Shown here one piece after another: positions 2,643-62,497 of a DNA stretch of 64,000 bases; within the stretch, counting starts at the first letter, position 1; each line of letters starts with the position of its first letter. The translations under genes were made by a program, and so were the position numbers. The notes beneath the pieces are model-generated. The model ran no database searches and was not told the DNA's origin. It saw only the letters and a program-made list of their open reading frames with translations. This DNA is from Arthrobacter sp. PAMC25284. GTDB taxonomy: Bacteria > Actinomycetota > Actinomycetes > Actinomycetales > Micrococcaceae. The stretch is taken from NCBI RefSeq assembly GCF_019443425.1, contig NZ_CP080382.1, positions 3,819,677-3,883,676 on the forward strand, written 5' to 3'.

Positions 2643-3287
2643 CAGGTTCTCCCTCGCCGCGGCTCGTCCTCGCCACGCACAATAAAGGCAAACTCCGGGA
2701 GCTCCGCGAACTGCTGCGCGGCCAGGTGCCCGGACTCGACGTCGACACCCAGGTCGTGGACGCCGCTGCGGTCGGCGCCCCGGACGTGGCCGAAACCGGC
2801 GTGACGTTTGCCGAGAACTCGCTGCTCAAGGGCCCGGGCGGTTGCGGAGGCGACCGGGCTCGTGGCGATCGCCGACGACTCCGGGCTCGCGGTCGACGTG
2901 CTCGGCGGCGCACCGGGAATCTTTTCGGCCCGCTGGGCCGGACGGCACGGGGACGACGACGCCAACCTGCGGCTGCTGCTGGCACAGCTGGCCGACGTGC
3001 CCGACGAACACCGGAATGCCGCGTTCGTCTGCGCTGCTGCCCTCGCCGTGCCCGGTGCTTCACCGGACGGCGGACGGGAAGTGGTGGAATACGGGCAACT
3101 GGAGGGCACGCTGCTGCGCGAACCCCGCGGCGCCGGCGGCTTCGGCTACGACCCCGTGCTCCAGCCGCGCGGACTGGACCGCAGCTGCGCCGAGCTGAGC
3201 CCGGCGGAGAAGAACGGCATCAGCCACCGCGGCCAGGCCTTCCGGGCGCTGCTGCCGGCGATCGTTGAGGCACTGGCAGCCAGCTAG
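2639..3287 (+). CDS. rdgB: dITP/XTP pyrophosphatase (RdgB/HAM1), one-base frameshift
   Basis: Removes non-canonical purine triphosphates (dITP, XTP). The N-terminal part starts at a GTG overlapping the rph stop and shows the substrate motif [15 protein letters not shown] and [12 protein letters not shown]. The reading frame then changes at the G run 2830-2832. In the next frame the protein continues as [18 protein letters not shown] (catalytic Asp), [20 protein letters not shown] and EKNGISHRG up to 3287. Removing one G at 2830-2832 restores 215 residues, a normal family length. The site reads AAGGGCCCG, so the extra base abuts GGCC, as in other broken genes here. I treat the gene as intact with a sequence error. 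Confidence 0.93.
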
Positions 3288-3333
3288 GCGCCCGCGTGGC
3301 CTGGCATCGAACGTGCGGCCAACTAGCGGTTAA

Positions 3334-3372
3334 CGAGCGAAGGCGCCCCATCCTGTGGGGCGCCTTCGCTCG
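3334..3372. terminator. Bidirectional intrinsic terminator between rdgB and dedA
   Basis: A perfect 17-bp stem (3334-3350 pairing with 3356-3372) with a 5-nt loop, located between the convergent rdgB and DedA genes. There is no long T tract, but the stem is exceptionally stable and placed to serve both transcripts. Confidence 0.85.
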
Positions 3373-3390
3373 ATTGTGCGGCCTGACCGC

Positions 3391-4173
3391 CTAGGGTGTC
3401 CGGCGTTCCTCTTCGGGTTCGTGCTCTTCGATGAACTCCTCCACGACGTCCGTGCCGTACTTTTCGGCCTGGCGCTTGGCGATGAAGCCGCGAATCACTT
3501 CGATGCCGATCGGGATGACGGAGACCAGGACGATCACGATGAAGATGATGTCCAGATTCTCGCGGACCCACGGCACTGTGTCGCCCAGCAGGTACCCCAG
3601 CAGGGTCACGCCGCCGCCCCACAGGACGGCGCCGATGACGTTGAAGAGGAAGAACCTGGGCTTGCTCATCTGGGCCACCCCGACGATCACGGGGACAAAC
3701 GTCCGGATGATCGGCACGAAACGGGCCAGGATCAGGGCCTTGCCGCCGTGCTTTTCGAAGAAGGCGTGGGCCTTCTCGACGTTCTCGCGCTTGAACAGCT
3801 TCGAATCGGGTTTGTTGAAGATCGCCGGGCCCACCTTGGAACCGATCAGGTAGCCCGTCTGGTTGCCGACGATCGCGGACACCATGATCAGCGCGGCGAA
3901 GGCCCAGATATTGAATTTGATGGTTTCCGTGGCCACAAGGAGCCCGGCCGTAAACAGCAAAGAGTCGCCCGGCAGGAAGAAGCCGATCAGCAGCCCGGTT
4001 TCGGCGAAGATGATGCCGCAGACCAGCAGCACGACCCACGGCGCGAGGGCGGGGTCGGCCAGGAACACTTGCGGGTTGAGCCATTCCGGGAGGAGGGAGG
4101 ACATACGGGGTTGCACCGGTCCGGCGCCCCCGAGGGCAGAGACGGCAAAATCACTCATTGCTATAAGGTTCAC
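3391..4173 (-). CDS. DedA family (SNARE-associated/VTT) membrane protein
   Basis: Polytopic inner-membrane protein of the DedA family, implicated in lipid carrier recycling and membrane homeostasis. Visible are hydrophobic segments near residues 45-65, the LPGDSLLF motif, a segment around AFAALIMVSAIVGNQTGY, the conserved ARFVPIIRTFVPVIVG stretch with its functional arginines, and two C-terminal helices followed by an acidic tail (EEFIEEHEPEEERR). The longest reading frame starts at a GTG (4173). An ATG at 4158 (MSDFAV) is an alternative, and neither has a clear ribosome site. The gene is monocistronic and convergent with rdgB. Confidence 0.9.
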   Translation of the reverse strand: MNLIAMSDFAVSALGGAGPVQPRMSSLLPEWLNPQVFLADPALAPWVVLLVCGIIFAETGLLIGFFLPGDSLLFTAGLLVATETIKFNIWAFAALIMVSAIVGNQTGYLIGSKVGPAIFNKPDSKLFKRENVEKAHAFFEKHGGKALILARFVPIIRTFVPVIVGVAQMSKPRFFLFNVIGAVLWGGGVTLLGYLLGDTVPWVRENLDIIFIVIVLVSVIPIGIEVIRGFIAKRQAEKYGTDVVEEFIEEHEPEEERRTP

Positions 4174-4280
4174 CCGTTAAGGGTACTGGAACGCCGCCGT
4201 CGGGCGATCGGGTCCGGTCCGGATGCTCAGCGGCGGCTCAGGATGCGGCCGGGTGCGCCAATGGACGGTAAAGTTGACGC

Positions 4281-5306
4281 GTGGGTTTGGACTTTACGGC
4301 GATCGACTTTGAGACCGCGAACGGCTTCCGCGGTTCACCGTGCGCTGTTGGCCTGACCAAGGTCCGTGGCGGCGTGGTCGTGGAGGAAGCCTCATGGCTC
4401 ATGCGGCCGCCGGAAAACCACGACTCCTTCGACCACCACAACGTCCGGATCCACGGCATCCGGCCGGACCGCGTGGCGGGACTTCCCCGGTTCGGTGACC
4501 TGTTTCCGGAGATCGGCGCCTTCATCGGCGGGGATGTGCTGGCCGCGCACAATGCCGCCTTCGATCTCGGCGTGATCCGCTCCGGCCTGGAGGTATCGGG
4601 ACTTGCCGGACCAGCCTACGACTATGTCTGCACGGTCATGCTGTCCCGTCGCTGCTACTCGCTGGTCTCGAACTCCCTGCCCTACGCGGCCGAGGAAGCC
4701 GGCGTGCCCCTGCTCAACCACCACGACGCGGCCGAGGATGCGCGCGCGTGTGCCGGCATCCTGATCGACATAGCCGCCCGTCACGGGGCAGGCAGCATCG
4801 CCGAACTGTACCTGTCCCTGGGGCTGAACGTGTCCCGGCAGCCGGCCTTCGATCCGCGGTGCGATCCACTCTCCAAGGCCACACAATCGGCGCTGGCCGC
4901 GCTCTCCGGCGGACCCGGCGGCGCTGCCGCGCCCGCAGCCCGGGCGTACCTCCCCGGCTGGCCGGAAGAGGGAGCCAACCCGGCGCCCAACGCCGACGCC
5001 GCCCCGGACCACCCGTTATTCGGACAGACGGTCGTTTTCACCGGCGAACTGGCAATTCCCCGGACCGAGGCGAAGATCCGTTCCGCCGAACTCGGCGCCC
5101 GGACCGAAAGCCGGGTCACCTCGCGCACGACGGTCCTGGTGGTGGGGGACGGGTTTGTCGCCGCGGACCTCCGTTCAGGGCGGCTCACCGGCAAGGCCCG
5201 CCGGGTCCTGGGATTGCACGACCGCGGGCAGCCGATCGAGGTGTTGTCGGAGGGCGAATTCCTGCAGATGGTCGGCGGCCACCTGGCGCCGGCTGTCCTG
5301 GCCTGA
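4281..5306 (+). CDS. DEDDh 3'-5' exonuclease with C-terminal BRCT domain (DNA polymerase III epsilon-like)
   Basis: A 341-residue protein with two domains. The N-terminal exonuclease domain (residues 5-165) carries the DEDDh residues: Asp9 and Glu11 in IDFETA, Asp95 in HNAAFD, and His148/Asp153 in HHDAAED. The C-terminal part (about 245-335) is a BRCT domain, beginning LFGQTVVFTGEL. A proline/alanine-rich linker joins them. The architecture is common in Actinobacteria and suggests proofreading or repair end-processing, not replicative epsilon itself. The GTG start at 4281 lies 6 nt after TAAAGT (4269-4274) with no Shine-Dalgarno sequence, consistent with a leaderless mRNA. Confidence 0.9.
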   Translation: MGLDFTAIDFETANGFRGSPCAVGLTKVRGGVVVEEASWLMRPPENHDSFDHHNVRIHGIRPDRVAGLPRFGDLFPEIGAFIGGDVLAAHNAAFDLGVIRSGLEVSGLAGPAYDYVCTVMLSRRCYSLVSNSLPYAAEEAGVPLLNHHDAAEDARACAGILIDIAARHGAGSIAELYLSLGLNVSRQPAFDPRCDPLSKATQSALAALSGGPGGAAAPAARAYLPGWPEEGANPAPNADAAPDHPLFGQTVVFTGELAIPRTEAKIRSAELGARTESRVTSRTTVLVVGDGFVAADLRSGRLTGKARRVLGLHDRGQPIEVLSEGEFLQMVGGHLAPAVLA

Positions 5307-5363
5307 CGTCATAAGGCGCAACAAACATTTACCGGGCGGCCCGCCGGCTCCTAGCCTTGACTG

Positions 5364-5894
5364 ATGAGCGAACTGATGGATGCACAGACCCCGGCCTCAC
5401 GGGGCGGCATCAACTGGGCCGCGGTCTTTGCTTTCCCCAACCCGGTCAATGAATATGCCGCACGGATCACTGCCGCCCTGGTGGTGGCACTGTCCGCCGT
5501 GACGCTGCTGACGGGCTCCGGCTGGGGGCTGGCGGTAATTGCAGCGGGTTTCTGGCTGCGCGTCCTGTTCGGCCCGCGGTTCTCACCGCTCGCCCTGCTC
5601 TCCGTCAAGGTTCTGACGCCCTGGCTGGGACGCACCCGCCTCGTTCCGGGTCCGCCCAAGCGTTTCGCCCAAGGTATCGGCGCGGCGGTGTCGACGGCGG
5701 CTGCGGTGCTGTTCGCGCTCGGCGCCGCACCGGCAGCCTGGATCCTGCTCGCCGTACTGATTGTCGCGGCTTCGCTTGAGGCCTTCGTCGGCTTTTGCCT
5801 GGGATGCACCATCTTCGGTTTCCTGCAGCGCCGCGGCCTCATTCCCGAGGACATCTGCGAAGCGTGCAATAACATCTCGCTGCGACGCGCCTAG
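5364..5894 (+). CDS. DUF4395 domain-containing membrane protein
   Basis: A 176-residue membrane protein. It begins with the DUF4395 hallmark FPNPVNEYAARITAAL, has about four hydrophobic helices (around residues 35-52, 54-70, 105-125 and 125-145), and contains the cysteine pair CLGC near residue 150 plus a third cysteine in EDICEAC. Function is unknown; family members often sit near thioredoxin or sulfur-transfer genes, but no such neighbour is seen here. ATG 5364 follows TAGCCT (5352-5357) by 6 nt with no ribosome site, so the message is probably leaderless. Confidence 0.85.
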   Translation: MSELMDAQTPASRGGINWAAVFAFPNPVNEYAARITAALVVALSAVTLLTGSGWGLAVIAAGFWLRVLFGPRFSPLALLSVKVLTPWLGRTRLVPGPPKRFAQGIGAAVSTAAAVLFALGAAPAAWILLAVLIVAASLEAFVGFCLGCTIFGFLQRRGLIPEDICEACNNISLRRA

Positions 5895-5915
5895 CTGCGC
5901 ACGGCCGGAGGACGC

Positions 5916-7109
5916 TTAGGCTCCGGTAACGGCCGTCAGCTTCCCGGCAAGACCGCGAATGACGTCCACGGCGTCCAACGCTTCAAGCCACTGCGCCGGC
6001 AGGCCTTCCTCGCCGTAGAACGCCCCCAGGATGCTCCCTGCAATTGACGCGGTGGTGTCGCTGCCGCCGCTGTGGTTGACCGCGACGGCCAGGGCCGAGC
6101 GGACATGCGCCTCGGCCGCGCCCGGTGCCGTGGTGGGCTCCGCCGCTCCAGTGGTGGGTTCCGCCGGTGCCGTGGCGAGCACAGCGTAGACGGCGATGGC
6201 GAGCGCCTGCTCGGCGGTGCGGCCCTCGCCCAGTTCGCGAACCATATCCTCCGGGCCGAGCAGGGTGGGCCCTGTTTCGGGCATAGTATCCCGCTCATCT
6301 GCCGGTCCGCTCAGCCGCAGGGCCGCCTCCAACTGCCCGATCAGGGCGGCATCCGGCGCCTCGCCTCGTTGCAGGGGTTCCTCCCGCAGGTGCCGCAGCG
6401 CAAATTCCGCCGCCTCCCGCAGTGCCAGCCCGGCTGTGACGGCGTGGATGAGCAGGCTGAAGATCCCCGCACCCTGCCGCGCCGCAGGGTGGCCGTGGGT
6501 CAGCGCCGCGGCGTCGGCGCTGAGCTTGTAGACCGTCGCCGGTTCGATATGCGGGATCAGGCCGAACGGGGCCGACCGTGCCACAGTGCTGCTGCCGTTC
6601 AGGTCCTGATTGACGGGCCGGAGGACGGTGCCCATTTCGCCGGTTGCCAGGCCGCTCAGGCAGGCCTCGTCCGGCGAGCGGCGGTGCTTGAGGGCCGCAT
6701 GCGAGTCAATCCAGCGTGGCGGCTGGACCGGCGCCGAGGGCGGGACCGCGACGCCCTGGGTGGCGAGCCAGCGCAGGTATGCGAGCCACACGCAGGCGTT
6801 GATGTCCGCCGCCACACCGTCGTTTGCCCATTCCAGCGCCTCAAGGAGACCATCTGCGGTGTACAGCGTCAGTTGGGTGTCGTCCGCGACGTGACTGCCG
6901 CCGTCGAGCGGGCTGAAGTCCCGCAGCCCGCTGGGACCGAACCTGGCCAGGATGGCGTCAATATCGTCAAATTCGACGGCGGACCCCAACGCGTCACCAA
7001 TCGCACCGCCGAGCAGGCAGCCGTGAATCCGGGAGGCAAAGGACGGGGCTGCCGATTCCCGGGACGGTGCCGGTGGCTGTGCAGGGGACGTGCCAGGCTC
7101 AAAGCTCAT
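5916..7109 (-). CDS. ADP-ribosylglycohydrolase family protein
   Basis: A 397-residue member of the ADP-ribosyl-glycohydrolase (DraG/ARH) fold. After a disordered Pro/Ser-rich leader it shows the family start IHGCLLGGAIGDALGSAVEF, the dinuclear metal motif VADDTQLTLYTADGLL, and the C-terminal metal site NHSGGSDTTASIAGSILGAFYG. It is expected to remove ADP-ribose from proteins or small molecules. No ADP-ribosyltransferase partner is nearby. I prefer the ATG at 7109 because a TAAATT box (minus strand, 7122-7117) sits 7 nt upstream; a longer frame to 7292 would cover the divergent DUF202 promoter. Confidence 0.9.
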   Translation of the reverse strand: MSFEPGTSPAQPPAPSRESAAPSFASRIHGCLLGGAIGDALGSAVEFDDIDAILARFGPSGLRDFSPLDGGSHVADDTQLTLYTADGLLEALEWANDGVAADINACVWLAYLRWLATQGVAVPPSAPVQPPRWIDSHAALKHRRSPDEACLSGLATGEMGTVLRPVNQDLNGSSTVARSAPFGLIPHIEPATVYKLSADAAALTHGHPAARQGAGIFSLLIHAVTAGLALREAAEFALRHLREEPLQRGEAPDAALIGQLEAALRLSGPADERDTMPETGPTLLGPEDMVRELGEGRTAEQALAIAVYAVLATAPAEPTTGAAEPTTAPGAAEAHVRSALAVAVNHSGGSDTTASIAGSILGAFYGEEGLPAQWLEALDAVDVIRGLAGKLTAVTGA

Positions 7110-7257
7110 GTCGTCCAATTTACCCCGTGGGTGGACCGCGGATGGTGCTGCGGCCGTCGGGGTGGCTGCGTCGGGTATGGTGCTGTTGAGAACGCCGGGA
7201 TTGGGGCGCCGGGGCTGGGACGCCGGCCGTGGCAGCCGGCCCGAGCAGAGGACAAGG

Positions 7258-7614
7258 ATGCGCGAACCCGCATGGCGCAGGACGGGCAGCACACCGGATT
7301 ACAGGTTCTCCCTCGCCAATGAACGGACTTTCCTGGCCTGGCTCAGGACGTCCCTGGCTCTGATCGCCGGGGCCCTTGCGATAGACCAGCTGGCCCCGGA
7401 TATCGCGCCGGCGCCGGTCCGGATCACCGTGTGCGTCATCCTGGCCGTCCTCGGCGCCGCCCTTGCCACGCTCGCCTACCGGCGCTGGGGACAGATGGAA
7501 GCCGCCATGCGGCACGAACGGGAACTGCCGTTCTCCGGAGTCATGTTGCTGACGACCTTGGGCGTCGCGGCCGCTGCACTGGTTTTCGCGGTCCTGATCC
7601 TGCTGGCACCGTGA
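7258..7614 (+). CDS. DUF202 (YidH-like) small membrane protein
   Basis: A 118-residue membrane protein with the DUF202 signature FSLANERTFLAWLRTSLALIAG, followed by two further hydrophobic helices (about 60-78 and 95-115), giving three membrane segments. Start taken at ATG 7258 because GAGGACAAGG precedes it. Its TGA overlaps the GTG of a second DUF202 gene (GTGA), so the pair is translationally coupled. Function is unknown; family members are usually found as tandem pairs, as here. Confidence 0.88.
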   Translation: MREPAWRRTGSTPDYRFSLANERTFLAWLRTSLALIAGALAIDQLAPDIAPAPVRITVCVILAVLGAALATLAYRRWGQMEAAMRHERELPFSGVMLLTTLGVAAAALVFAVLILLAP

Positions 7615-7968
7615 CTCCGGGGGCCGTGAATCCCGGGCCGGCCCGGGATCCCGGGCTGCAGCCGGAACGGACGTCGCTGGCCTGGCGCCGCACACTGCTG
7701 GCCCTGGTGGTCGTGGACCTGCTGATCTGGCGCAGCTGGGTGCTCGCAGGCAACCGGACGCCCGATCCCGGCGCCGTCGACTATCTCGGAATCTGTGCCC
7801 TCACCGCGGCCCTGGCAACCGTCGTCCTGTGCCTCTGCGTGCTCGAACGCGGCCGGGAACTCCACCGGTCCACGGCGGCCCCCGCGGGCAGTAATCCTGC
7901 GCTGGGCATCAAGTGCCGCCGTCGCGCTGGCCGCCAGCGCCGTCGCCGCCGTGGCGCTGGGCGGCTGA
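7611..7968 (+). CDS. Second DUF202 membrane protein, one-base frameshift
   Basis: Coupled to the preceding DUF202 gene through GTGA. It shows LQPERTSLAWRRTLLALVVVDL and a second helix (ICALTAALATVVLCLCVL) in the first frame. The frame is lost in the C run 7879-7883. In the following frame the expected third helix appears (ILRWASSAAVALAASAVAAV) and ends at TGA 7966-7968. Removing one C gives a 118-residue protein of the same length as its partner. The site reads GGCCCCCG, again next to GGCC. I consider this a sequence error, not gene loss. Confidence 0.8.
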
Positions 7969-8059
7969 ACCCCCGGCTCGGGCGGCCGGACCCGCCGCTG
8001 AAGCCCCGCGAACGGCCCCGCCGTCCGTTCTTGTCGGTGGCAGCCGATACCGTAGGAGC

Positions 8060-12321: not shown

Positions 12322-12329
12322 GCTGCGCG

Positions 12330-12390
12330 GCTGGCGGCCGCGGCAGCCGCTGATTGCCGGCGCCGCAATCCCGCGGGCGGCCATGCCAGC
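12330..12390. terminator. GC-rich hairpin downstream of sbcC
   Basis: Imperfect inverted repeat: 12330-12343 against 12371-12390, with a smaller GATTGC/GCAATC hairpin at its centre. It lies 9 nt after the sbcC stop and has no T tract. A terminator role is inferred from position. Confidence 0.4.
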
Positions 12391-12454
12391 CGGCCGCGGC
12401 AGCGTCCGCTACCATGGGAGAGTTACCGGGTTGCGCGCATCGGGAGGAGGGACG

Positions 12455-12520
12455 ATGCGCATCATTGAGCGAACCCGGAAACATGAACACTTCAACGCTT
12501 TCTTCGGCGGCAGTCACTGA
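12455..12520 (+). other. Possible 21-codon upstream ORF overlapping the MFS start
   Basis: ATG 12455 sits 7 nt after GGAGG (12443-12447) and reads MRIIERTRKHEHFNAFFGGSH before TGA at 12518. It overlaps the MFS gene in another frame. It could be a coupled leader peptide. Alternatively, a one-base error between 12455 and 12483 would make this the true MFS N-terminus. Confidence 0.3.
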
Positions 12521-13826: not shown

Positions 13827-13839
13827 CGGTCCTGGCGCC

Positions 13840-21909: not shown

Positions 21910-22768
21910 TCAGCTGATTTCGACGGCGTCACCGCTGACGATAATCCCGCCGAGCAGCGGAACCTCGACGGTGAGCACGCTCGGGCGGCCGACGTGGCTG
22001 CCCTGGTGCACGACCACGCGGGCGGGCAGTTCCACGAGTGAGAGCAGGCGGAGGTATCCGCCGAACGACGCGGCGGCCGAACCCGTCGCCGGGTCCTCGG
22101 TGATGGTGCCCACCGGGAAGAGGTTGCGTGAGTCGAACTCGCCCGGTCCCGTCGCGCAGAGCGTTGTGACGGTGCCGGCCCAGTGCTGATCATCCATCAG
22201 CGCGCGCAGCGGAGCCGGGTCGAAGACAAAGGAATCGAAGGTCGTCCGGTCGGCGAAGACGAGGATCGGGTGCCAGTTACCGGCGAACGCGACCATCGGC
22301 GGGTAGCCGGGGTCCAGATCGTCCCGGACCACGCCGAGCAGCCCGAGCAATCTCTCCAGGATGCCGTCGGGAAACCCGGCCAGCTGCGGCTCAACGCTCG
22401 TGAACCGTGCCGTCACCGCGGTGCCCTGGCCTGCGGTCTCGATCACGACCGGCCCCCACCGCTGTGTCGAAGGTGAAGGATCCGGTTCCGTCGCGCCCTG
22501 ACAGCGCCACGGCCAGGGCGATGGTGGCGTGGCCGCAAAATGGAACCTCGGCAATCGGCGAGAAGAAGCGCACCCGGTGCCGCCGGGGGTTTCCCTCAAG
22601 CGCCACTCCGGTGACGAATACCGTTTCGGCGTAGCCGACGTCGGCGGCGATGGCCTGCATAAGGGCGTCGTCCAGACGGGTCGCGTCGAGCACTACCCCC
22701 GCAGGGTTTCCACCGCCGGGGGTAGTGCTGAAGGCGGCGTAACGCAGTACGTCCGTGGCCTGTTCCAT
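21910..22768 (-). CDS. PhzF family isomerase/epimerase, one-base frameshift
   Basis: Corrected length 285 residues. The N-terminal half, to about residue 105, has RYAAFSTTPGGGNPAGVVLDA, DVGYAETVFVTG and RFFSPIAEVPFCGHATIALA. The second half, in another frame, has PVVIETAGQG, LFPVGTITEDPATGSAAASFGGYLR and VHQGSHVGRPS. The shift is in the C run 22453-22457 on the plus strand (GTGGGGGCC on the coding strand); removing one base joins the halves. PhzF proteins are diaminopimelate-epimerase-fold isomerases; the substrate here is unknown. The extra base abuts GGCC, supporting a sequencing artefact. Confidence 0.9.
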
Positions 22769-25743: not shown

Positions 25744-27042
25744 GCAGCGTCAACACGGCAATCCAGCTGATTACGCGTGAACAGGCGGAGCGGAAGGTGC
25801 CGGCAGCTTCCACCTGCAGCCCGGCGCTCGCCCGGGGGCCCTGGGATTTCGACGCCGCCGAGTCGCGCGCCGGGGCCCCGGCCTACGGCCCCGGCGCCTC
25901 CTCGGCCGACGTCGCCCCGGCGTCGACGCCGCGCCAAGGCCAGCTCCCTGAGGAGTACAAGCTCGCCAGCGACGCCGAACTGGACGCCCGGATCCGGGCC
26001 GCCAAAGCCACGCTCGGGGACCGCGCCGTCGTCCTGGGCCACTTTTACCAACGCGATGAGGTGATCGAATACGCCGACTTTGTGGGCGACTCGTTCCAGC
26101 TCGCCAACGCGGCCCTGACCCGGCCGGACGCTGAAGCCATCATCTTCTGCGGTGTGCACTTTATGGCCGAGACGGCGGATATTCTGTCCCGGCCGGACCA
26201 GGCCGTCATTCTGCCCAACCTCGCCGCCGGCTGCTCGATGGCGGACATGGCCGACATCGACTCGGTCACCGAATGCTGGGAACAGCTGGAGGAGCTCTAC
26301 GGCACGGAACCCGACGCCGACGGACGGGTACCCGTCATCCCCGTCACCTACATGAACTCCTCGGCAGCACTCAAAGGCTTCTGCGGCGACCACGGCGGGA
26401 TCGTCTGCACGTCGTCCAATGCCGCGACCGTGCTGGAGTGGGCCTTCGAGCGCGGGCAGCGGGTGCTGTTCTTCCCGGACCAGCACCTGGGCCGCAACAC
26501 CGCCAAGGCGATGGGCGTACCGCTGGAGAAGATGCCGATGTGGAACCCGCGCAAAGACCTCGGCGGCAACGACGAGCAGACCCTCCAGGACTCCCGCGTC
26601 ATCCTATGGCACGGGTTCTGCTCGGTGCACAAGCGCTTCAACGTGGGCCAGATCGACAAGGCCCCGCGCCGAGAACCCCGGCGTCCAGGTGATCGTGCAC
26701 CCGGAATGTCCGATGGAGGTCGTTGATGCCGCCGACTCCGCCGGGTCCACCGACTTCATCAAAAAGGCCATCGCCGCAGCCACCGAACCCGCCACGTTCG
26801 CGATCGGGACCGAGATCAACATGGTCAACCGGCTGGCCGCCGAATACCCGCAGCACACGATCTTCTGCCTCGATCCGGTGATCTGCCCCTGCTCAACGAT
26901 GTACCGGATCCACCCCGGCTACCTCGCCTGGGTCCTCGAAGCCCTTGTCCGGGGCGAGGTGCTCAACCGCATCACGGTGGATGACGAGGTCGCTGGCCCT
27001 GCCCGGGTCGCGCTGGAGCGCATGTTGGCCGCGCGGCCATGA
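25740..27042 (+). CDS. nadA: Quinolinate synthase, one-base frameshift
   Basis: Condenses iminoaspartate with dihydroxyacetone phosphate to quinolinate using a [4Fe-4S] cluster. Corrected length is 433 residues. The first frame gives VVLGHFYQRDEVIEYADFVGDSFQLA, FCGVHFMAETADIL, GCSMADMAD, TYMNSSAALKGFCGDHGG and FFPDQHLGRNTAK. The second gives VQVIVHPECPMEV, FAIGTEINMVNRLA and DPVICPCSTMYRIHP. Conserved cluster cysteines are in FCGVHF, HPECP and CPCS. The shift is in the C run 26662-26665 (GGCCCCGC, next to GGCC); removing one C restores the protein. The N-terminal 75 residues are a variable extension. Overlaps nrtR and nadB starts. Confidence 0.94.
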
Positions 27043-28774: not shown

Positions 28775-29738
28775 ATGACCGCAACCGCCGCCACCATGGC
28801 ACCACGCGCCGCCCTCCCGACCGCCGACGGTTTCGCCGGGACCCTGCCGGAGTCCGCCGTCGATGCCGTTCTCCGCATGGCACTGCAGGAGGACGCCCCT
28901 TACGGCGACATCACGTCCCAGACCCTCATCCCCACCGGCGCGCGGGCGACGGCGGTACTGAACGCGCGCGAGCCCGGTGTCCTCAGCGGCGGGGCGGTCT
29001 TCGCCGCCGCAATGAAGCTGACGGATCCGGACGCCGTCGTGGACCTCCTTGTCCGCGACGGCGAGGCGTTTGCGGCCGGGACGGCGCTGGCGACCGTCAC
29101 CGGCAACGCCCGGGCCGTGCTGCTCGCCGAACGCGTGGCCCTGAACCTGGTCCAGCGAATGAGCGCCATCGCCACCAAAACGGCCGGCTTCGTCGCGCTG
29201 GTGGCGGGCACGAAGGCGCGGATCACCGATACCCGGAAGACGACCCCCGGACTCCGGGTGCTCGAACGCTATGCCGTCCGTTGCGGCGGCGGCGCCAACC
29301 ACCGCTTCAGCCTCTCCGACGCCGTACTCGCCAAGGACAACCACCTGGCCGTGCTCAGTGGTGGCGATCCGGAGAAGCTCACCGCAGTGCTGCGGAACGC
29401 CAAGGCCCAATTGGGCCACACAACGCACTTCGAAGTGGAAGTGGACAGTATGGCGCAGATCGAACCGGTGCTGGCCGCCGGGGTGGACACGATCATGCTC
29501 GACAACTTCACGCTGGCGGATCTGGCAGCCGGCGTGGCGCTGGTGGCGGGCCGGGGCCCGGGTCGAGGCCAGCGGCAACGTCAATGCCGGCACCGTGGCG
29601 GACATCGCCGCCACCGGGGTGGATGACATCTCCATCGGCGGCCTCACCCACAGCGTCATCGCGCTGGACCTCGGGCTGGACATCGGTCTGGACATGGCCC
29701 CCGGGACCGGCTCCGGTGCCGGGCCGACGGCCGGCTGA
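28775..29738 (+). CDS. nadC: Nicotinate-nucleotide pyrophosphorylase (carboxylating), one-base frameshift
   Basis: Converts quinolinate and PRPP to nicotinate mononucleotide. The first frame carries MALQEDAPYGDITSQTLIP, LNLVQRMSAIATKTAGFV, KARITDTRKTTPGLRVLERYAVRCGGGANHRFSLSD, AVLAKDNH and HFEVEVDSMAQIEPVL. The frame breaks at the G run 29553-29556 (CCGGGGCCCG). The next frame gives VEASGNVNAGTVADIAATGVDDISIGGLTHS. Removing one G yields 320 residues, with the C-terminal sequence that completes the barrel. The insertion abuts GGCC. Starts 3 nt after nadB. Confidence 0.94.
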
Positions 29739-45461: not shown

Positions 45462-45939
45462 CCTGATATGGATCGCTGGCCTACGGGCCGCCTATTGTCC
45501 ACGGCAGCGCGCCTTGTAGAACACTCCTGGAACGAAAAGCTGGGGGCTATTGGCCTGACCCACGCCGGCGTTATCGCCATGGAGGTGTTGTCCGCCAACG
45601 GACCCATGACGCAGGCTCAGCTGGCCCACCTTGTCCGCGTCCAGGCGCAAACCATGGGGAAGACGCTGAGCCGGTTGGAGGCGCACGGCCATATTTCCCG
45701 GCAACGGAGCGACTCGGACCGCCGGAGCCAGGTGGTGTCGCTGACCGACCGCGGCCGCGAGGCAGTTGGCGAAGCCGCCGATATGGAGCGCTCGGTTCTT
45801 GCTGCAACGTCGATAGACCCGGACGTTCTGCGCCAGGAGCTGCAGTCCGTCGTCCGGGTGCTTGCGATCAGGGGCCTCTGCGGACCTCAAGATCGTCGTC
45901 GACGCCGGATCAGACACCGCGGCCGGGTCCTCTGCCTGA
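45459..45939 (+). CDS. MarR family transcriptional regulator, probable one-base frameshift near the 3' end
   Basis: A winged-helix regulator with GPMTQAQLAHLVRVQAQTMGKTLSRLEAHGHISRQRSDSDRRSQVVSLTDRGREAV. The simple reading frame runs to 46076, across a terminator, with an arginine-rich tail foreign to the family. Removing one G from the run at 45871-45874 (CAGGGGCCTC) switches to a frame ending DLKIVVDAGSDTAAGSSA and a stop at 45937, giving 159 residues. I prefer this version because it ends before the terminator and the site again abuts GGCC. Divergent from the bcp peroxidase gene, which it may regulate in response to oxidants. Confidence 0.8.
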
Positions 45940-51537: not shown

Positions 51538-51598
51538 TGCCGATCCTGCGGCGGCGGTCATCCGGCCACCGCCGCAAGATCACTCAGTGGACAATGAT

Positions 51599-51617: not shown

Positions 51618-51628
51618 AGGTGGGCTCG

Positions 51629-51658: not shown

Positions 51659-51664
51659 GAACGC

Positions 51665-51739: not shown

Positions 51740-51767
51740 CCGGTACTGGTAACGAACCATCACGCGC

Positions 51768-51806
51768 AACCCCTCGAAGAGCCGATCAGGCTGAGGGGTT
51801 TTTTTA
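51768..51806 (+). terminator. Attenuator terminator before ilvB
   Basis: Stem AACCCCTC (51768-51775) with GAGGGGTT (51793-51800), inner pairing AGCC/GGCT, and a run of Ts. It lies 28 nt past the leader-peptide stop and 76 nt before ilvB. Confidence 0.85.
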
Positions 51807-51882
51807 TTCCCGCAACATACGCAGCACCAGCACCATACCGATCGCAGAAGATCCACCAGTAGATCCCCAAAGGAAGAGTCCG

Positions 51883-53781: not shown

Positions 53782-53783
53782 AC

Positions 53784-55413
<1,630 letters not shown>

Positions 55414-55423
55414 GCTTAACCCG

Positions 55424-55468
55424 GCAGGGAAGCCGGACACCATACTGGGGTCCGGCTTCCCTGCTTTT
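55424..55468 (+). terminator. Terminator downstream of ilvC
   Basis: A 15-bp perfect stem (55424-55438 with 55450-55464) followed by TTTT. Confidence 0.9.
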
Positions 55469-55529
55469 CAGCGTCAACCGTTTCACCAATATCCGCGCCT
55501 GTTATACAAGAGAGCTAAAGAGGTCACCG

Positions 55530-57127
55530 GTGACAAGCACCAAACCTGTTGTACTCCTCGCTGAGGAACTTTCGCCCGCCACCGTCGAGGCCCTCGGCCC
55601 GGACTTCGAGATCCGCCAGACCGACGGCGCCGACCGTTCCCAGTTGCTCTCCGCAATCGTCGACGTCGACGCCATCCTCGTCCGGTCGGCCACGCAGGTC
55701 GACGCCGAGGCCATCGCCGCGGCGAAGAACCTCAAGATCATCGCCCGTGCCGGCGTCGGCCTGGACAACGTCGATATCAAGGCTGCCACGCAGGGGCGGC
55801 GTGATGGTGGTCAACGCCCCGACCTCGAACATCATCTCCGCAGCCGAACTGACAGTCGGCCACATCCTGAGCCTGGCCCGTCACATCCCGCAGGCCAGCG
55901 CCGCCCTCAAGGATGGCGAGTGGAAGCGCTCCAAGTACACCGGTACCGAGCTCTATGAAAAGAAAATCGGCATCATCGGACTGGGCCGGATCGGCGCCCT
56001 CGTCGCGGCCCGGCTCAAGGGCTTCGAGACCCAGATCCTCGCGTACGATCCCTACATCACCGCAGCCCGGGCGGCCCAGCTCGGCGTGCAGCTGGTGACC
56101 CTTGACGAGTTGCTCGCGCAGGCGGACTTCATCACCATCCACATGCCCAAGACCCCGGAGACCGTCGGTATGCTCGGCGCGGACGCCTTCCGGAAGATGA
56201 AGGGCACCGCGTACGTCGTCAACGTCGCCCGCGGTGGCCTGGTGGACGAAGAGGCCCTGTACACGGCGCTGGAGTCTGGTGAGATCGCCGGCGCCGGCGT
56301 CGACGTCTTCGTCAAAGAGCCCAGCACCGACCTGCCGTTCTTCAAGCTCGACAACGTCGTGGTGACCCCGCACCTGGGCGCCTCCACTGATGAGGCGCAG
56401 GAGAAGGCCGGTGTGTCGGTGGCCAAATCCGTCCGCCTGGCACTGGCCGGCGAACTCGTCCCCGACGCCGTCAACGTCGCCGGCGGCATCATCGACCCCG
56501 ATGTCCGTCCCGGCATCCCGCTGATCGAGAAGCTGGGCCGGATCTTCACCGCGCTGACCCACGCCTCCCTGACACAGTTCGACGTCGAGGTTGCCGGCGA
56601 GATCTCAACCCTTGATGTGAAGGTGCTGGAACTCTCGGCGCTGAAGGGAATCTTTGCCGATATCGTGACCGAGCAGGTCTCCTACGTCAACGCCCCCGTC
56701 ATCGCCGAACAGCGCGGTATCAACGTCCGCCTCATCACCACTCCGGACACCGAGTCCTACCGCAATGTGCTGACCCTGCGCGGGGCGCTTAGCGACGGAA
56801 GCCAGATTTCCGTGGCAGGAACCCTGACCGGGCCAAAGCAGATCCAGAAGCTCGTCGGCGTGAACGGCTTCGAAGTGGAAATCCCGATCAGCGAACACCT
56901 CGTGGTGGTCGCCTACGCGGACCGTCCCGGCGTGATCGGTACGATCGGCCACATCCTGGGCATGAACAACATCAACATTGCCGGCATGCAGGTGGCACGC
57001 CAGACCGAGGGCGGCCAGGTGCTGGCGCTGCTCACGATCGACAGTTCCGTGCCGCAGCAGGTCCTTGACGCGATCAAGGGCCGGCATCGGCGCTGACATG
57101 GTCCGCGAGGTTGATCTCGAGGACTGA
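55530..57127 (+). CDS. serA: D-3-phosphoglycerate dehydrogenase, two one-base frameshifts
   Basis: First step of serine synthesis. GTG 55530 follows AAAGAGG. The N-terminus reads PVVLLAEELSPATVEALG to LKIIARAGVGLDNVDIKAATQ. One extra G in 55793-55796 shifts the frame, which resumes GVMVVNAPTSNIISAAELTVGHIL, IGIIGLGRIGALVAARLKGF (NAD motif), VVNVARGGLVDEEAL, HLGASTDEAQEKAG and the ACT domain. A second extra G in 57078-57080 (AAGGGCCGG) spoils the end; corrected, the protein finishes AGIGADMVREVDLED at TGA 57125. Corrected length 531, the long actinobacterial form with ASB and ACT domains. Confidence 0.93.
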
Positions 57128-57136
57128 CACCCGATG

Positions 57137-57172
57137 TGACGCGCGGCGCCTGTCGAACGGTGCCGCGCGTCA
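57137..57172 (+). terminator. Hairpin terminator downstream of serA
   Basis: Eleven-base arms 57137-57147 and 57162-57172. It starts 10 nt after the corrected serA stop, supporting that stop. Confidence 0.6.
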
Positions 57173-57239
57173 TTGAACGGGCAGCTCTCCGCGTACAATG
57201 GCTACGTCCGATACTTCGGATCCGGCCGGTTAACCGGCC
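57173..57239 (+). promoter_or_regulatory. Promoter and palindromes upstream of the ABC exporter
   Basis: TTGAAC (57173-57178) and TACAAT (57194-57199), spaced 15 nt, are followed by two palindromes: TCCGA-TACT-TCGGA (57207-57220) and the perfect 16-mer GGCCGGTTAACCGGCC (57224-57239). These could be a regulator site or 5' leader hairpins. Confidence 0.5.
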
Positions 57240-57327
57240 ATTACTTTTGCGCGCCCGGCAGGGGACGCCCCCACTTCCGCACGGAATATAGGTGGCGTGC
57301 GCACGCAATCCAGCTTTCAGGAGCCCA

Positions 57328-60131
57328 ATGAACGCCGTCCAGAGGTTCATCAGAAGCCGAGTGCTTCTGCTGACCGCGTCCATTTTGATCGTGGCCATGG
57401 GCCTTTCGGTCCTTGTCCAGACCCAGTCGCAGGCAGCACTGAACCGGACTGTGGACCAGAACTCCCGTGGCCTCTACGACATTCTGGTTCACGCCAGCCC
57501 GGGGGATAACGGGGCCCTGATGCAGCCGGATATCGCCACCGGCCAGGGCGGCATCGGCTTCGACCAGCTGGACGCCATCCGCAAGCTCTCCGGCACGTCT
57601 GTTGCCGCTCCCATCAGCCTGGTTTCCCGCGTGACGCAAAACCTCGAGTCCCCGCGGCTCGAAGCCACTGATTACCTCGGCTACAGCGCCGGGCTCGCCG
57701 GCACCGCGGGGGACCCGACCGCCACGGATCCGGGCAAGTGGCCGGCCGCCGAGTCGGTCCTCAACGACGCCGCCACGAAGTACCGGCTCACCGCCCACCG
57801 CCGTCAGCTCAGACGGCCACTCCGAGCAGACGCTCTTCAAAACGACGGCCGAAGGTTCCGTCGGCAAAGCCAAGCTTGTCGAAGAGGAAGTTGCCGGCGG
57901 CAAGAACGTCCGGATCCAGGGCCCCGGCAGGGAGACCGGCATCAAGTTCCCGGCCCCGGCCGGCGGATCAGAGCACACACTCTTCAACCTCGCTGTATCC
58001 CTGCCGATGGCGCCGCAGGTGGACCGAGTCCGTCGTCGCCGTCGATCCCGTCTCCGAGCGTGCGCTGCTCGGTTCCGCGGGTGACTTCCTTGCCCCGCTG
58101 GAGAAGGCTCCGCCCGCTGACGCCCGCAACGCCGGAGCGATCGGGCGTCACTTCGAAAGCCTCTTCACCAGCGGCATCAGCATGGACGAACTCAAGGAAG
58201 CCCCGACTTTCCTGGGCGTTAAGCTCAAGTACTGGGCTCCGCTGATGACCCAGTACCAGCAGGCCAAGCGCAGCGGCCAGCTCACGGACAAATCTCAGGC
58301 GATCCCGCTGATCGTCCGCTCAGGCACGTCCCTGGACCTGACGTACTCGGTCAAGATCGAGAAATCGATGCCGACGGGAACGTCACAAAAGACGTCGGCA
58401 CAGCCACCCGCTCGCTCGGCAAGGACTACCTGCCGTTCGTGTCCAAGTCACCGTTCGCACTTGCCTGGGCCCGGGTCCACAGACCTGACGCAGCTCCTCG
58501 GCGACACCGGCTCGTTCGGCCAGGGCCTCTACAGCCCCGCGAACTGGAGCACCGACTTCGCGGCGGCGCCCCGGTACCAGGACGGCGAAACCCGCCGGCA
58601 ACGGTGCCATGGACAAAAACTGCCACCCCCGGCGAATGGGTCACCGTGAACCGGTTGCCGGAGAAGTCCGCGAGCGGCGAACCCGTGGACCAGACCCAGC
58701 GCGAGCCCGTGGACGAGCGCGCCTACCGGGAGGGACCTGGAGACCGGCAAGCAGCTGGCGAGCCCGCTCGCCATGGTCTATGGCACCTTTGACCCCGAGC
58801 AGGTTAAGGAAGCCGCCGGCGACGTCAACCGTCTGCCGCTCGGCGGCTACGATCCGACTCCGTTCACGCTGACCCGGGATGCCGACGGCAAGGCGGTCGA
58901 AAACACTGAACTCAAGCCGTCGTTGAGCGCCACCGGACTGGCAAGCCAGTCCGCCGGTGCCATCACCCGACTACTACGGCCTCGCCGCCGCGCGCGGTTT
59001 CGAAGCCAACGCCAAGGTCATCGACGCCGTCCGGGTCCGCGCCAAGGCCGCCGGCAGCTGGAAGCAGGCGCAGCCCGAGGTAGAGAAGCTCGCCGACGAG
59101 ATCCGCGGCATGGGCCTGCAGGCCACTGTGGTCGCCGGTTCCGCCCGCGAGGATGCGAACATCGCGGTACCGGGCTACTCCAAGGACGACGCCGCAAGGA
59201 ATCGCCGCTGGGCGTCGTGGAGCAGTCGTGGGTCCGGCAGAACGCCGCCGACGCCGTGTCCTCGTCGCTGACCGCCACCAACCTCACGCTTTTGTTCCTG
59301 ACCCTCTGCGGCGCCGCGCTCCTGACCGGAGCCCTCCACCGTGAGCTTCATCCGGAAGCGCCGCAGTGATGCCGGCATCCTGCGCGCCATGGGCTGGACG
59401 CAGAAGAAGATCCCGCAACTGGGTACTGTCCGAGTTCGGCGTCGGCGCGGTACTGCTCGCCGCCGCCGGAATCATCCTTACCCTGCTCAGCTGGAGCCTG
59501 CCGACGGCCATCGTCTCGGCGTCGGTACTGGCGCTCTACACCGGGGGCCGCACTCGTCGCGGCGCAGCAGCTGCGCCACCGGGACGTGGTGGACCAGGAA
59601 CCGCAGCACGATGAGCGGCTCATTGCGGTCGATTCCCCGCTGACGTTCGCCAACCGGCAGCTGAGCACCAATAAGTTCAACACCATCTCGCTCGCCGTCG
59701 CCGTCGGAGTCTTCGGCTCGGCTGTCGGCGGACTGGCCGCGCTACTGATTGACATTCCGCGGGCAGCCGGCGCGAGCGCGCTGAGCGGGCTGGCCGCAGC
59801 CAGCATCGCCACGCCCAGCATTGTCCTGGGCGTTGCGGGCGTCGCCGTCGGCCTGATCCTGACCCTCGTGACCGGACGCTTTGAACTGCAGTCCAAGCGC
59901 CAGTACCTCGGAACCCTGGCCGCGATGGGCTGGAACCCGGGACATGCTCGGTCAGGTCCGCTTCTTTGAAACTGCCATGGTCGGGACGGTCGGCATTGCC
60001 GCTGGGTGTGCTGGGCGCCCTCGGCATCGGACTGCTCGTTGGCCCCCTATGCCGCACTGTGGGCGGCGCTTGCCGGCCTTGTGGCTGTCATCTGCTGGAT
60101 TCCCATTGCAACGAAAGTGGTCAATGACTAA
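57328..60131 (+). CDS. FtsX-like ABC transporter permease, broken by 14 one-base indels
   Basis: ATG 57328 follows CAGGAG. The N-terminal helix is VLLLTASILIVAMGLSVLVQ, then a long extracytoplasmic region, then FtsX-type helices (NLTLLFLTLCGAALLTGA, RSDAGILRAMGWTQKKI, a repeat of that motif as KRQYLGTLAAMGWN, and IAAGVLGALGIGLLVG). Extra bases are near 57795, 58021, 58468, 58733, 58967, 59333, 59422, 59545, 59941, 60006 and 60046; missing bases near 58363, 58592 and 59195. The net change of +8 gives one continuous 931-residue frame with no stop and a normal terminus at TAA 60129. Every event is a homopolymer length change, so I judge the gene intact in the cell. Confidence 0.8.
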
Positions 60132-60898
60132 CGACCTGAACCCCGACCGGGCGGCACACGACCGGATGACGGCGAGCACCCGCCGCACGGCGCCCACAAG
60201 ACCCGGGCCAACACGATCGTCAAGGTCACGGACCACGCCACACCGCTGGAACTGAGCAATGTCACCATCCACTACGGCGGAGGCAAGGGCGGTGCGGATG
60301 CCGTCGACGTTGTTGATGATTTCAACCTGACGCTGCACGCCGGTGAGATGCACTGCGTCGCGGGCCGCTCCGGCTCGGGCAAGACCAGCATCCTGACGGT
60401 CAGTGCGGGCCCTGACCTGCCGACGTCGGGCCGGGTCTTCTGGGAAGGCGACTCACTCGAGTCGATGGCCGACGACGAAATCGCCGACCGCCGACGCGCC
60501 CTGATCGGCTATGTGGACCAGTGGCGGGGCCTTGATCGACCGGAATGAGCGCGCTGGAAAACGTCCTGCTGCCGGCCGTCCCCGACGGCGAGGTGGACCA
60601 GCGCCGCGACATGGCCAAAGACCTCCTGGACCTCGTGGGGCCTGGGCCGGCGGATGCGGCACCGTCCCGCGCAGCTCTCCGGCGGTGAGCGGCAACGGGT
60701 GGCAATCGCGCGGGGCCCTGATTCTGGGCACCCGCGTCCTGGTGGTCGACGAGCCGACGGCCAGCCTGGACCGGGCCGCGGCGAACCGCATCATCAGCAT
60801 CCTCAAGGACACGACCTCCGGACGGCATCGCCGTGCTGGTGGCATCACATGACCACGAACTCGTCCGACTGAGCGATACCCTCACCGAACTGATCTAG
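60124..60898 (+). CDS. ABC transporter ATP-binding protein (MacB/LolD type), broken by six one-base indels
   Basis: Partner of the upstream permease; ATG 60124 overlaps its stop. Walker A is [14 protein letters not shown], the signature is [13 protein letters not shown], and Walker B is [12 protein letters not shown], followed by the H-loop VASHDHE. A missing base lies at 60179-60181; extra bases are near 60525, 60544, 60638, 60713 and 60820. Three of the insertions are in GGGGCC. Corrected length 256 residues, normal for the family. Together they form an exporter or a mechanotransmission complex; the substrate is unknown. Confidence 0.8.
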
Positions 60899-60936
60899 AT
60901 CAGTCATCCCTTCGCACCAAAGGTAACGTCCCTCCC

Positions 60937-62497
60937 GTGACATTTTCTGAAAAGACCCCGTTCTACATCACCACGGCCATCACCTACCCGAACGGTGTGC
61001 CGCACATCGGCCATGCCTACGAGTACATTGCCACCGATGCGATGGCCCGCTTCAAGCGGCTGGACGGGTTCGACGTCTTCTTCCTGACCGGAACGGACGA
61101 GCACGGAATGAAAATTGCCCAGACGGCGGAGAAGGAAGGGATCACCCCCAAGGAGCTGGTGGACCGGAACGCGGACATCTACAAGGCGGCGCACGCGGCC
61201 CTGGGGATTTCCTATGACCGGTTCATCCGCACCACCGACGCCGACCACTACGCCGCATCGCAGGCCATCTGGAAGAAGATGGAAGCCAATGGCGACATCT
61301 ACCTCTCCAAGTACGAGGGCTGGTACTCCGTCCGGGACGAGGGCCTACTACGTCGCGGATGAGACGGTCGTTAAGGACGACGGCGTCCGCTACTCGCGCG
61401 AAACCGACACTGAGGTGACGTGGACGGCGGAGGAGAGCTACTTCTTCCGGCTCTCCTCCTACCAGGACAAGCTGCTGGCGCTCTATGAAGCCAACCCCGA
61501 ATTCGGCGCCCCGCAATACCGCTTCAACGAGGTCATCAGCTTCGTCCGGAACGGCCTGGAGGACCTGTCCATCAGCCGGACCAGCTTCGACTGGGGCGTA
61601 CCGGTCCCCGGCAACGACAAGCACGTGATGTATGTCTGGGTGGACGCGCTCACCAACTACCTCACCGGCGTCGGCTACCCCGATTTGGAATCGGAATCGT
61701 TTAAGAAGTTCTGGCCGGCCGATGTCCATGTGATCGGTAAGGACATCTCCCGGTTCCACGCCATTTTCTGGCCTGCCTTCCTGATGAGTGCAGGACTGGA
61801 ACTGCCCAAGCGGGTCATGATTCACGGCTTCCTGCAGAACAATGGCGTCAAGATGTCAAAATCCGTCGGCAACGTCGTGGCGCCCGAAGATTTCGTGGCG
61901 CAGTACGGCCTGGACCAGGTGCGGTTCTTCCTCCTCCGTGAGGTCCCGTTCGGCGCGGACGGCAACTACAACCATGAGGCCATTGTGGGCCGGATGAATT
62001 CGGACCTCGCCAACAACTTCGGCAACCTCGCCCAGCGGTCGCTGTCCATGGTGGCCAAGAACTGTGAGGGCCGGGTTCCCGTGCCGGGCACGTTCACCGC
62101 CGCAGACGAGGCGCTCCTGGGCCAGGCCGGCGGCCTCCTGGAGATTGCCCGGGCCGCGTTCGAAAAGCAGGAATTCAGCCGGGCACTGGAAGCGATCTGG
62201 GCCGTCCTGGGGGACACCAACGCGTACTTCGCCGACCAGGCCCCGTGGGTGCTGCGCAAGACCGACGTCGAGCGCATGAACACTGTTCTTTACGTCACCC
62301 TGGAAGTGCTGCGGATCGTGGCCATCCTCGCCCAGCCGGTCATGCCGACCGCCGCCGCGGCGATCCTGACCAGCCTGGGCCAGCCCGAGGGGGAGGCCCG
62401 GCAGTTCGCTGCCATCCCGGCGCCCATCGTTGCCGGCACCAATCTGCCCGCCCCGGCCCCGGTCTTCCCGAAGTACGAGGAGCCCGCGGAGGCGTAG
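60937..62497 (+). CDS. metG: Methionyl-tRNA synthetase, one-base frameshift
   Basis: Charges tRNA-Met. Class I motifs HIGH ([13 protein letters not shown] near residue 22) and KMSKS ([12 protein letters not shown]) are present, with [11 protein letters not shown]. The frame breaks at the G run 61341-61343 (GAGGGCCTAC); removing one G gives SVRDEAYYVADE and a 519-residue protein of the short type lacking the C-terminal tRNA-binding domain. The insertion abuts GGCC. GTG 60937 is the start. Confidence 0.94.

What the first reader, a model, noticed from the sequence alone, without database searches (positions are those of the whole stretch)
2830..61343. Isolated frameshifts sit almost exclusively at GGCC
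Ten single-base insertions break genes outside the ABC exporter: rdgB 2830, DUF202 7879, MHS 18142, phzF 22453, nadA 26662, nadC 29553, marR 45871, serA 55793 and 57078, metG 61341. In nine of ten (all but serA 55793) the extra base extends the G or C run of a GGCC site. Each corrects to a full-length protein of normal length. Independent decay would not favour one tetranucleotide or spare protein sequence. A systematic read error at modified GGCC (HaeIII-type cytosine methylation) would explain it and would imply a GGCC methyltransferase in this strain.
Basis: partly seen in the sequence, partly recalled or inferred. Interest (0 to 1): 0.75.

Follow-up and report, generated by a model that had tools for sequence, protein, structure and literature searches.

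The report
Sulfur-marked GGCC sites misread as frameshifts
In the parts compared, this soil bacterium's assembly carries an extra base at about 1% of its GGCC blocks, almost certainly read errors and likely caused by sulfur-modified DNA (a rare Dnd system is encoded in its genome), so the broken genes would be artefacts and the errors would map an unusual DNA modification.

Summary
Frameshift-aware alignment supports all ten reader sites (three weakly); nine are at GGCC. In 564 kb of this Arthrobacter assembly, outside one noisy patch, 36 of 36 single-base insertions confirmed by two or more relatives sit at GGCC (expected 7-17%). They hit secA (twice), gltX and ispH; another, in the patch, splits the only metG, so they cannot be real. 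No C5 cytosine methyltransferase was found in the assembly, but a DndABCDE phosphorothioation locus was; DndC occurs in 2 of 206 genus genomes. This DndC carries the Arg-Pro-Lys loop published as the mark of GpsGCC specificity. The prediction was tested elsewhere: plasmids of a second Dnd+ Arthrobacter, StoSoilB13, show the same signature (21 of 28 +1 shifts near GGCC, background 16%); plasmids of three strains of the same series show 0 of 5; four Dnd-negative relatives show no +1 at GGCC. Three other Dnd+ assemblies show no significant excess (platform unknown). Best reading: phosphorothioated GGCC beside G/C runs was read one base too long. The exporter cluster is a separate low-quality patch.

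The parts
2830..2835 (+). GGGCCC block in rdgB where the frame moves by +1
   Evidence: 4 of 4 relatives; family
7877..7883 (+). GGCCCCC block in a DUF202 gene, +1
   Evidence: 1 relative; PF02656
18142..18147 (+). GGGGCC block in an MHS-type transporter gene, +1
   Evidence: 4 of 4 relatives; family
22451..22457 (-). GGCCCCC block (as read on the + strand) in a phzF-like gene, frame change
   Evidence: PF02567 split over two frames; no relative had the gene in the stretches fetched
26660..26665 (+). GGCCCC block in nadA, +1
   Evidence: 3 of 3 relatives; family
29553..29559 (+). GGGGCCC block in nadC, +1
   Evidence: 3 of 3 relatives; family
45871..45876 (+). GGGGCC block near the 3' end of a marR gene, frame change
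   Evidence: tails of the 3 relatives tried fit only after a frame change at 45874; PF01047
55793..55796 (+). GGGG run in serA, +1; the one reader site NOT at GGCC; assigned to the noisy patch
   Evidence: 3 relatives on the gene strand
57078..57082 (+). GGGCC block in serA, +1
   Evidence: 3 relatives on the gene strand
61341..61345 (+). GGGCC block in metG, +1; splits the only metG of the assembly
   Evidence: 4 of 4 relatives; only copy
55700..61400 (.). Noisy patch (bounds chosen by me after seeing the events) with the ABC exporter genes: 20 insertions and 2 deletions located in 5,213 comparable bases, 6 of 20 insertions at GGCC; read as a separate low-quality consensus stretch 2.6-8.3 kb from the contig end

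Best explanation
The extra bases at GGCC are almost certainly consensus read errors, likely caused by DNA phosphorothioation that the strain's Dnd system is predicted to place at GpsGCC. Shown here: the insertions are at GGCC over the 564 kb examined, they become more frequent with longer G/C runs, they hit essential genes, no C5 methyltransferase was found in the assembly, a DndABCDE locus is present, its DndC bears the published GGCC-type loop Arg-Pro-Lys, and the same signature appears in a second Dnd+ Arthrobacter but not in four Dnd-negative relatives or in plasmids of three strains of the second strain's series. Inferred: DndCDE puts sulfur between the two G of GGCC on part of the sites; the sulfur slows or disturbs a single-molecule sequencer there; beside a run of G or C the disturbance is called as one more base in enough reads to win the consensus, so about 2-8% of GGCC blocks with longer runs and about 0.1% of bare GGCC end up one base too long. 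The dense cluster in the ABC exporter is a different thing: a stretch of poor consensus near the contig end with insertions in any context.
For: 36 of 36 confirmed insertions at GGCC outside the patch. G/C runs of 3+: 34 events among 1432 with GGCC, 0 among 7071 without. Rate by inferred original block length: 4 bases 3 of 2163, 5 bases 19 of 965, 6 bases 9 of 260, 7 bases 4 of 53. Control, same method: four relatives without DndC show 2 confirmed +1 in 433,677 comparable bases, neither at GGCC. Essential genes hit: secA twice, gltX, ispH, dapC, hemC, citrate synthase, 2-oxoglutarate decarboxylase/dehydrogenase twice, nadA, nadC; only metG split. DndC 695.6 bits against a cut-off of 290.4; DndA, B, D, E beside it. 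DndC in 2 of 206 genus genomes. Loop R132-P133-K134 in a GYPAP-RPK-FRW context; [quoted passage not shown] Prediction tested: StoSoilB13 plasmids carry an RPK-loop DndC and show 21 of 28 +1 shifts within 25 bases of GGGCC/GGCCC in 391 kb against 15.8% background; plasmids of NicSoilE8, NicSoilB11 and NtRootA4 show 0 of 5 in 400 kb where 17.4 were expected. A study of NtRoot, StoSoil and NicSoil strains from Kameoka soil names PacBio Sequel II and HiSeq 2500 (PMC8262997 passages). Phosphorothioates change PacBio polymerase kinetics (PMC9521924 passages) and raise nanopore base errors around the site (PMC9069010, section 17).
Against: Three other Dnd+ assemblies show no significant excess with the gene-model method: G717 4 of 11 (background 0.19), G789 3 of 17, Nonomuraea gerenzanensis LT559118 1 of 5, although the DndC of G717 and G789 also has RPK; their platforms and polishing are unknown to me, so the claim is limited to some platforms or pipelines. 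No call measures sulfur. The platform of this assembly is unknown. The StoSoilB13 study lists short reads too; short-read polishing should remove such errors, and I did not see which reads served which strain. The one-study origin of StoSoilB13 and its controls rests on name series and sampling site. One paper passage calls the SMRT signal of phosphorothioates relatively low (PMC9521924). Only about 1% of GGCC blocks are affected (36 of 3452). The flank preference reported for S. lividans (CGGCC or GGCCG, PMC6186775 passage) is not clearly enriched: possible in 24 and certain in 7 of 36 events; the one flank effect, fewer T before the G run (8 of 72 against 652 of 2512, p 0.004), is modest. 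In the relative control one +2 event, in G020, lies beside a GGGCC. The chromosomes of StoSoilB13 and of the three control strains were not examined, so their methyltransferases and, for the controls, chromosomal Dnd genes are unknown; the two StoSoilB13 plasmids and three of the four control plasmids hold no PF00145.
Confidence: 0.78

Rival explanations
1. Cytosine methylation at GGCC by a HaeIII-type (C5) or an N4 methyltransferase disturbs the sequencer.
For: GGCC is the HaeIII target (recalled); modification-driven motif errors are documented for nanopore assemblies (PMC10687267 passages).
Against: No PF00145 and no TIGR00675 match in the 3.88 Mb contig while both models ring in 10 of 14 control genomes; the two PF01555 proteins carry DPPF and match adenine methyltransferases best. 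Two relatives that do have a C5 methyltransferase over the cut-off, of unknown motif (G010, G018), show no +1 at GGCC. The two StoSoilB13 plasmids have no PF00145.
Confidence: 0.08
2. A chemistry or polishing artefact at G/C palindromes that needs no DNA modification.
For: The error rate climbs with G/C run length, as any homopolymer artefact would; three Dnd+ assemblies lack the signal.
Against: 0 of 7071 G/C runs of 3+ without GGCC are hit; four Dnd-negative relatives and 400 kb of plasmids from three strains of StoSoilB13's series lack it.
Confidence: 0.08
3. The sulfur acts by breaking: phosphorothioated GGCC is nicked or cut during DNA handling and end repair or re-ligation adds a base, instead of the sequencer misreading an intact site.
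For: Same Dnd and motif evidence as the main explanation. Sulfur-modified S. lividans DNA is hard to isolate intact and was handled in HEPES in place of Tris (PMC6295645 passages).
Against: Repair of rare breaks would have to dominate the consensus at a site; the dependence on run length fits misreading better.
Confidence: 0.05
4. Real frameshifts: gene decay or phase variation at GGCC.
For: The bases are in the deposited sequence.
Against: The sole metG, secA with two shifts, gltX and ispH are hit; protein identity read across the shifts stays high, 0.82-0.90 in metG and 0.94-0.95 in serA.
Confidence: 0.01

Closest known systems
Dnd phosphorothioation of Streptomyces lividans 1326 and Pseudomonas fluorescens Pf0-1 (GpsGCC)
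   Same: DndA to DndE present; DndC specificity loop Arg-Pro-Lys, the same three residues as R132-P133-K134 of S. lividans (paper passages, ours); the affected motif is GGCC
   Different: Sulfur not measured here; the S. lividans flanks are not clearly enriched; no DndF, DndG or DndH among the nine proteins scanned at the locus
Modification-mediated consensus errors in nanopore assemblies (Listeria, PMC10687267)
   Same: Motif-specific systematic errors in low-quality genomes, four of which carry a methyltransferase-encoding system absent from the good ones (passages)
   Different: There mismatches at two pentamer motifs and nanopore reads; here single-base insertions at a motif tied to a backbone modification, in a second strain whose series was sequenced with PacBio and HiSeq
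HaeIII-type restriction-modification
   Same: Target GGCC (recalled)
   Different: No C5 methyltransferase found in the assembly

Membership tests
Dnd phosphorothioation system | DndC sulfurtransferase | tested here: met
   TIGR03183 695.6 bits, cut-off 290.4
Dnd phosphorothioation system | DndD and DndE | tested here: met
   TIGR03185 589.1 bits (cut-off 245.85), TIGR03184 96.8 bits (cut-off 71.85); PADLOC ranks a PbeC model (677 bits) above DndD (640) for the DndD protein
Dnd phosphorothioation system | DndA or IscS cysteine desulfurase | tested here: met
   TIGR03235 479.8 bits against a cut-off of 480, so just short of it; best PDB match is the dndA entry 3vax; PADLOC ranks SspA (424 bits) above DndA (403)
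Dnd phosphorothioation system | DndB regulator | tested here: met
   PF14072 over its cut-off in both of two overlapping frames that meet at a GGGCCC block; each half is below the TIGR03233 whole-protein cut-off
Dnd system of GpsGCC specificity | Arg-Xxx-Lys/Arg at the DndC specificity loop | tested here: met
   RPK at residues 132-134; rule from PMC12193691 passages
Dnd system of GpsGCC specificity | sulfur at GpsGCC in genomic DNA | not testable with these tools
   needs LC-MS or cleavage mapping
Dnd restriction (DndFGH) | DndF, DndG, DndH genes | tested here: inconclusive
   not among nine proteins of the locus (one protein has a TIGR04095 match of 65 bits against a cut-off of 600); rest of the genome not searched for them
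HaeIII-type restriction-modification | C5 cytosine methyltransferase gene | tested here: not met
   no PF00145 or TIGR00675 match in the contig
Modification-mediated consensus error | errors confined to one motif and tied to a modification system across strains | tested here: met
   36 of 36 at GGCC; Dnd+ StoSoilB13 21 of 28, same-series controls 0 of 5; but three Dnd+ assemblies of unknown platform lack it

The most novel reading that the evidence does not exclude
Phosphorothioate sulfur leaves a readable +1 footprint at its target motif in long-read assemblies, so the presence, the activity and the motif of a Dnd system can be read from deposited genome sequences alone, with no raw data, and hundreds of pseudogenes in Dnd+ genomes are ghosts of this backbone modification.
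Probability: 0.58. Interest if true: 0.75.

Novelty: new variant of a known kind. Interest (0 to 1): 0.62.

Why it matters
If right, pseudogene counts in Dnd+ genomes from some long-read pipelines are inflated (by simple extrapolation of 36 per 250 kb of coding sequence, some 500 false frameshifts in this genome), and such genomes need short-read polishing or reads from amplified DNA. It also gives a free assay: the motif and activity of a backbone modification could be read from assemblies already deposited. Among the papers listed by my searches I saw none that reports assembly errors from phosphorothioation; I read passages of some of them only. The nearest is PMC5760749, a Dnd+ Halobacteriovorax assembled from PacBio reads and polished with short reads, whose passages do not link errors to Dnd. 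The library lacks most subscription journals.

Tried and rejected
HaeIII-type methylation: no gene found. Other methyltransferases: two PF01555 genes, both DPPF; three weak PF02384 hits not pursued, as GGCC has no adenine. Plain homopolymer error: 0 of 7071 runs without GGCC. Real decay: essential genes hit. S. lividans flank rule as a further fingerprint: not clearly enriched. Gene-model frameshift calls without relatives have many false positives (43 of 141 calls near a confirmed event, 44 of 60 events recovered), so I required coding support on both sides (threshold 12, chosen by me) and judged by the GGCC share. Dnd+ genomes G717, G789 and Nonomuraea gave no signal. The single-contig Dnd+ genome G765 was examined at its dndC locus only, since I could not tell whether it belongs to a pathogen genus. 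A paper that names the strain of this window was not found; Cao et al. 2014 is not held.
Full report
WHAT IT IS. The window is the last 64,000 bases of a single 3,883,676-base contig of an Arthrobacter; a conserved gene of the window matches Arthrobacter records at up to 95% protein identity. I located the syntenic stretches of four relatives at 71 to 87% DNA identity and wrote a protein-to-DNA aligner that allows frameshifts.

THE OBSERVATION. All ten reader sites are frame changes. Seven have three or four relatives behind them (2830, 18142, 26662, 29553, 55793, 57078, 61341). Three are weaker: 7879 has one relative and a Pfam match, 22453 has a Pfam family split over two frames, and 45871 lies near a gene end where the three relatives tried fit only after a frame change. 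Nine of ten are in a GGCC block.

TEST BEYOND THE WINDOW. I extended the comparison to 500 kb more of the same contig with 600 kb each of two relatives and 140 to 160 kb of two more. In 250,026 coding bases comparable with two or more relatives, and leaving out the noisy patch at 55.7-61.4 kb, 36 insertions and 2 deletions are confirmed. All 36 insertions lie at GGCC; a random interval does so in 6.8% of cases and a G/C run of three or more in 16.8% (1432 of 8503). Events backed by one relative only were dropped; of the 13 such insertions outside the patch where only one relative was comparable, 7 are at GGCC (my count). The rate rises with the length of the G/C block: bare GGCC about 0.1%, inferred original blocks of five, six and seven bases about 2%, 3.5% and 7.5%. 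So GGCC was present in every case, and a longer run makes the error more likely.

CONTROLS. The same method applied to the four relatives finds 2 confirmed +1 events in 433,677 comparable bases, neither at GGCC; one +2 event in G020 lies beside a GGGCC. DndC is absent from all four.

NOT BIOLOGY. The confirmed insertions hit secA (two), gltX, ispH, typA, dapC, hemC, citrate synthase, the 2-oxoglutarate decarboxylase/dehydrogenase (two), nadA, nadC and a recG-like gene among others (the 36 events fall in 33 reference genes, of which 18 were given to the family search, 2 of these without a match at the threshold used). The only metG of the assembly is split as well. A living cell cannot carry these. 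They are errors of the sequence.

WHY GGCC. None was found in the contig: no PF00145 and no TIGR00675. The two PF01555 proteins have DPPF motifs and match adenine methyltransferases best, N4-cytosine ones more weakly; the motif rule is recalled. What the genome does have is a dnd locus at 1,667,839-1,675,324: a phosphorothioation-associated methyltransferase, DndA, DndB (itself split at a GGGCCC block), DndC, DndD and DndE. DndC occurs in 2 of 206 genus genomes searched, in 2 of 396 genomes of an order sample and in 8 of 394 of a class sample, this genome counted in each. [quoted passage not shown] lividans (PMC12193691). The DndC here reads GYPAP-RPK-FRW with RPK at 132-134. So the genome predicts sulfur at GGCC by a rule that has nothing to do with the errors.

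A PREDICTION TESTED. If sulfur is the cause, another Dnd+ strain sequenced in a similar way should show it. A search of plasmid records gave one Arthrobacter record with DndC, StoSoilB13 (67.1% identical DndC, also RPK). I take it for a different genome, since it has two large plasmids that the single-contig assembly here lacks and a different DndC. In 391 kb of these plasmids, gene-model frameshift calls give 21 of 28 +1 shifts within 25 bases of GGGCC/GGCCC against 15.8% background, 1.5 per 100 coding sites. Strains of the NtRoot, StoSoil and NicSoil series from Kameoka soil were sequenced with PacBio Sequel II and Illumina HiSeq 2500 (PMC8262997, passages); that the records used here belong to that study is inferred from series name and sampling site, as the passages do not name these strains. 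Plasmids of NicSoilE8 (two), NicSoilB11 and NtRootA4 (400 kb; StoSoilB13 is the only Arthrobacter plasmid record with DndC at E 1e-60) give 0 of 5 where 17.4 were expected. On the same measure this genome, patch included, gives 38 of 53 and the four Dnd-negative relatives together 8 of 41.

AGAINST. Three other Dnd+ assemblies show no significant excess (G717 4 of 11, G789 3 of 17, Nonomuraea LT559118 1 of 5). Their platforms and polishing are unknown to me; short-read polishing would remove the signal, but I could not show that, and StoSoilB13's own study lists short reads. The S. lividans flank preference is not clearly enriched. No call measures sulfur, and the platform of this assembly is unknown.

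MECHANISM. Shown: motif, dependence on run length, gene set, correlation with Dnd in Arthrobacter. Inferred: sulfur between the two G of GGCC disturbs the polymerase or the pore, an extra base is called within the adjoining run, and the consensus follows where many molecules carry the sulfur. Published support for the single steps: phosphorothioates alter PacBio polymerase kinetics, with a relatively low signal (PMC9521924 passages), and raise base errors around the site on nanopores (PMC9069010 section 17); modification is partial, about 10-12% of sites in the systems quoted (PMC9069010 and PMC6186775 passages). That an excess of insertions points to PacBio and not to nanopore reads is recalled knowledge about error types.

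THE EXPORTER CLUSTER. Between 55.7 and 61.4 kb there are 20 located insertions and 2 deletions in 5,213 comparable bases, 28 times the outside density, only 6 of 20 insertions at GGCC. Protein identity of the two exporter genes read across the shifts stays at 0.83 to 0.93, so this is poor consensus, not decay. The patch lies 2.6 to 8.3 kb from the contig end, which joins the contig start inside one reading frame (read by eye).

Noticed in passing
window 55700-61400: Dense patch of insertions in any context in the ABC exporter genes, near the contig end: low-quality consensus, separate from the GGCC errors.
   Followed up: partly
L199:7839-15324 (G000:C1:1667839-1675324): A dnd locus in a stretch of lower GC (mostly 56-59%) than the 60-71% on its left, next to a transposase-like gene (name from its sequence, recalled); dndB is itself split at a GGGCCC block.
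   Followed up: yes
L199:15418-19879, minus strand: Beside dnd: a GmrSD N-terminal domain protein and a large helicase-type protein that matches PADLOC's type IV modification-dependent restriction model (1031 bits); possible partners or rivals of the sulfur mark.
   Followed up: no
window 64000 / contig start: The contig is cut inside a gene (looks like ilvE, recalled) and its end joins its start in frame: a circular chromosome opened at an arbitrary place.
   Followed up: partly
window 25026: A one-base deletion supported by two relatives near a gene start, not at GGCC; could be a start-site difference.
   Followed up: no
NZ_AP024648.1 and NZ_AP024649.1 (L237, L239-L242, L247, L248, L257): StoSoilB13 plasmids carry the same GGCC insertion signature, and their records hold almost no annotated genes in the plasmid collection (0 and 1 features).
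   Followed up: partly
L201-L209: The nine other actinobacterial DndC genes examined all have the RPK loop, so GGCC-type phosphorothioation may be the rule in this class.
   Followed up: no
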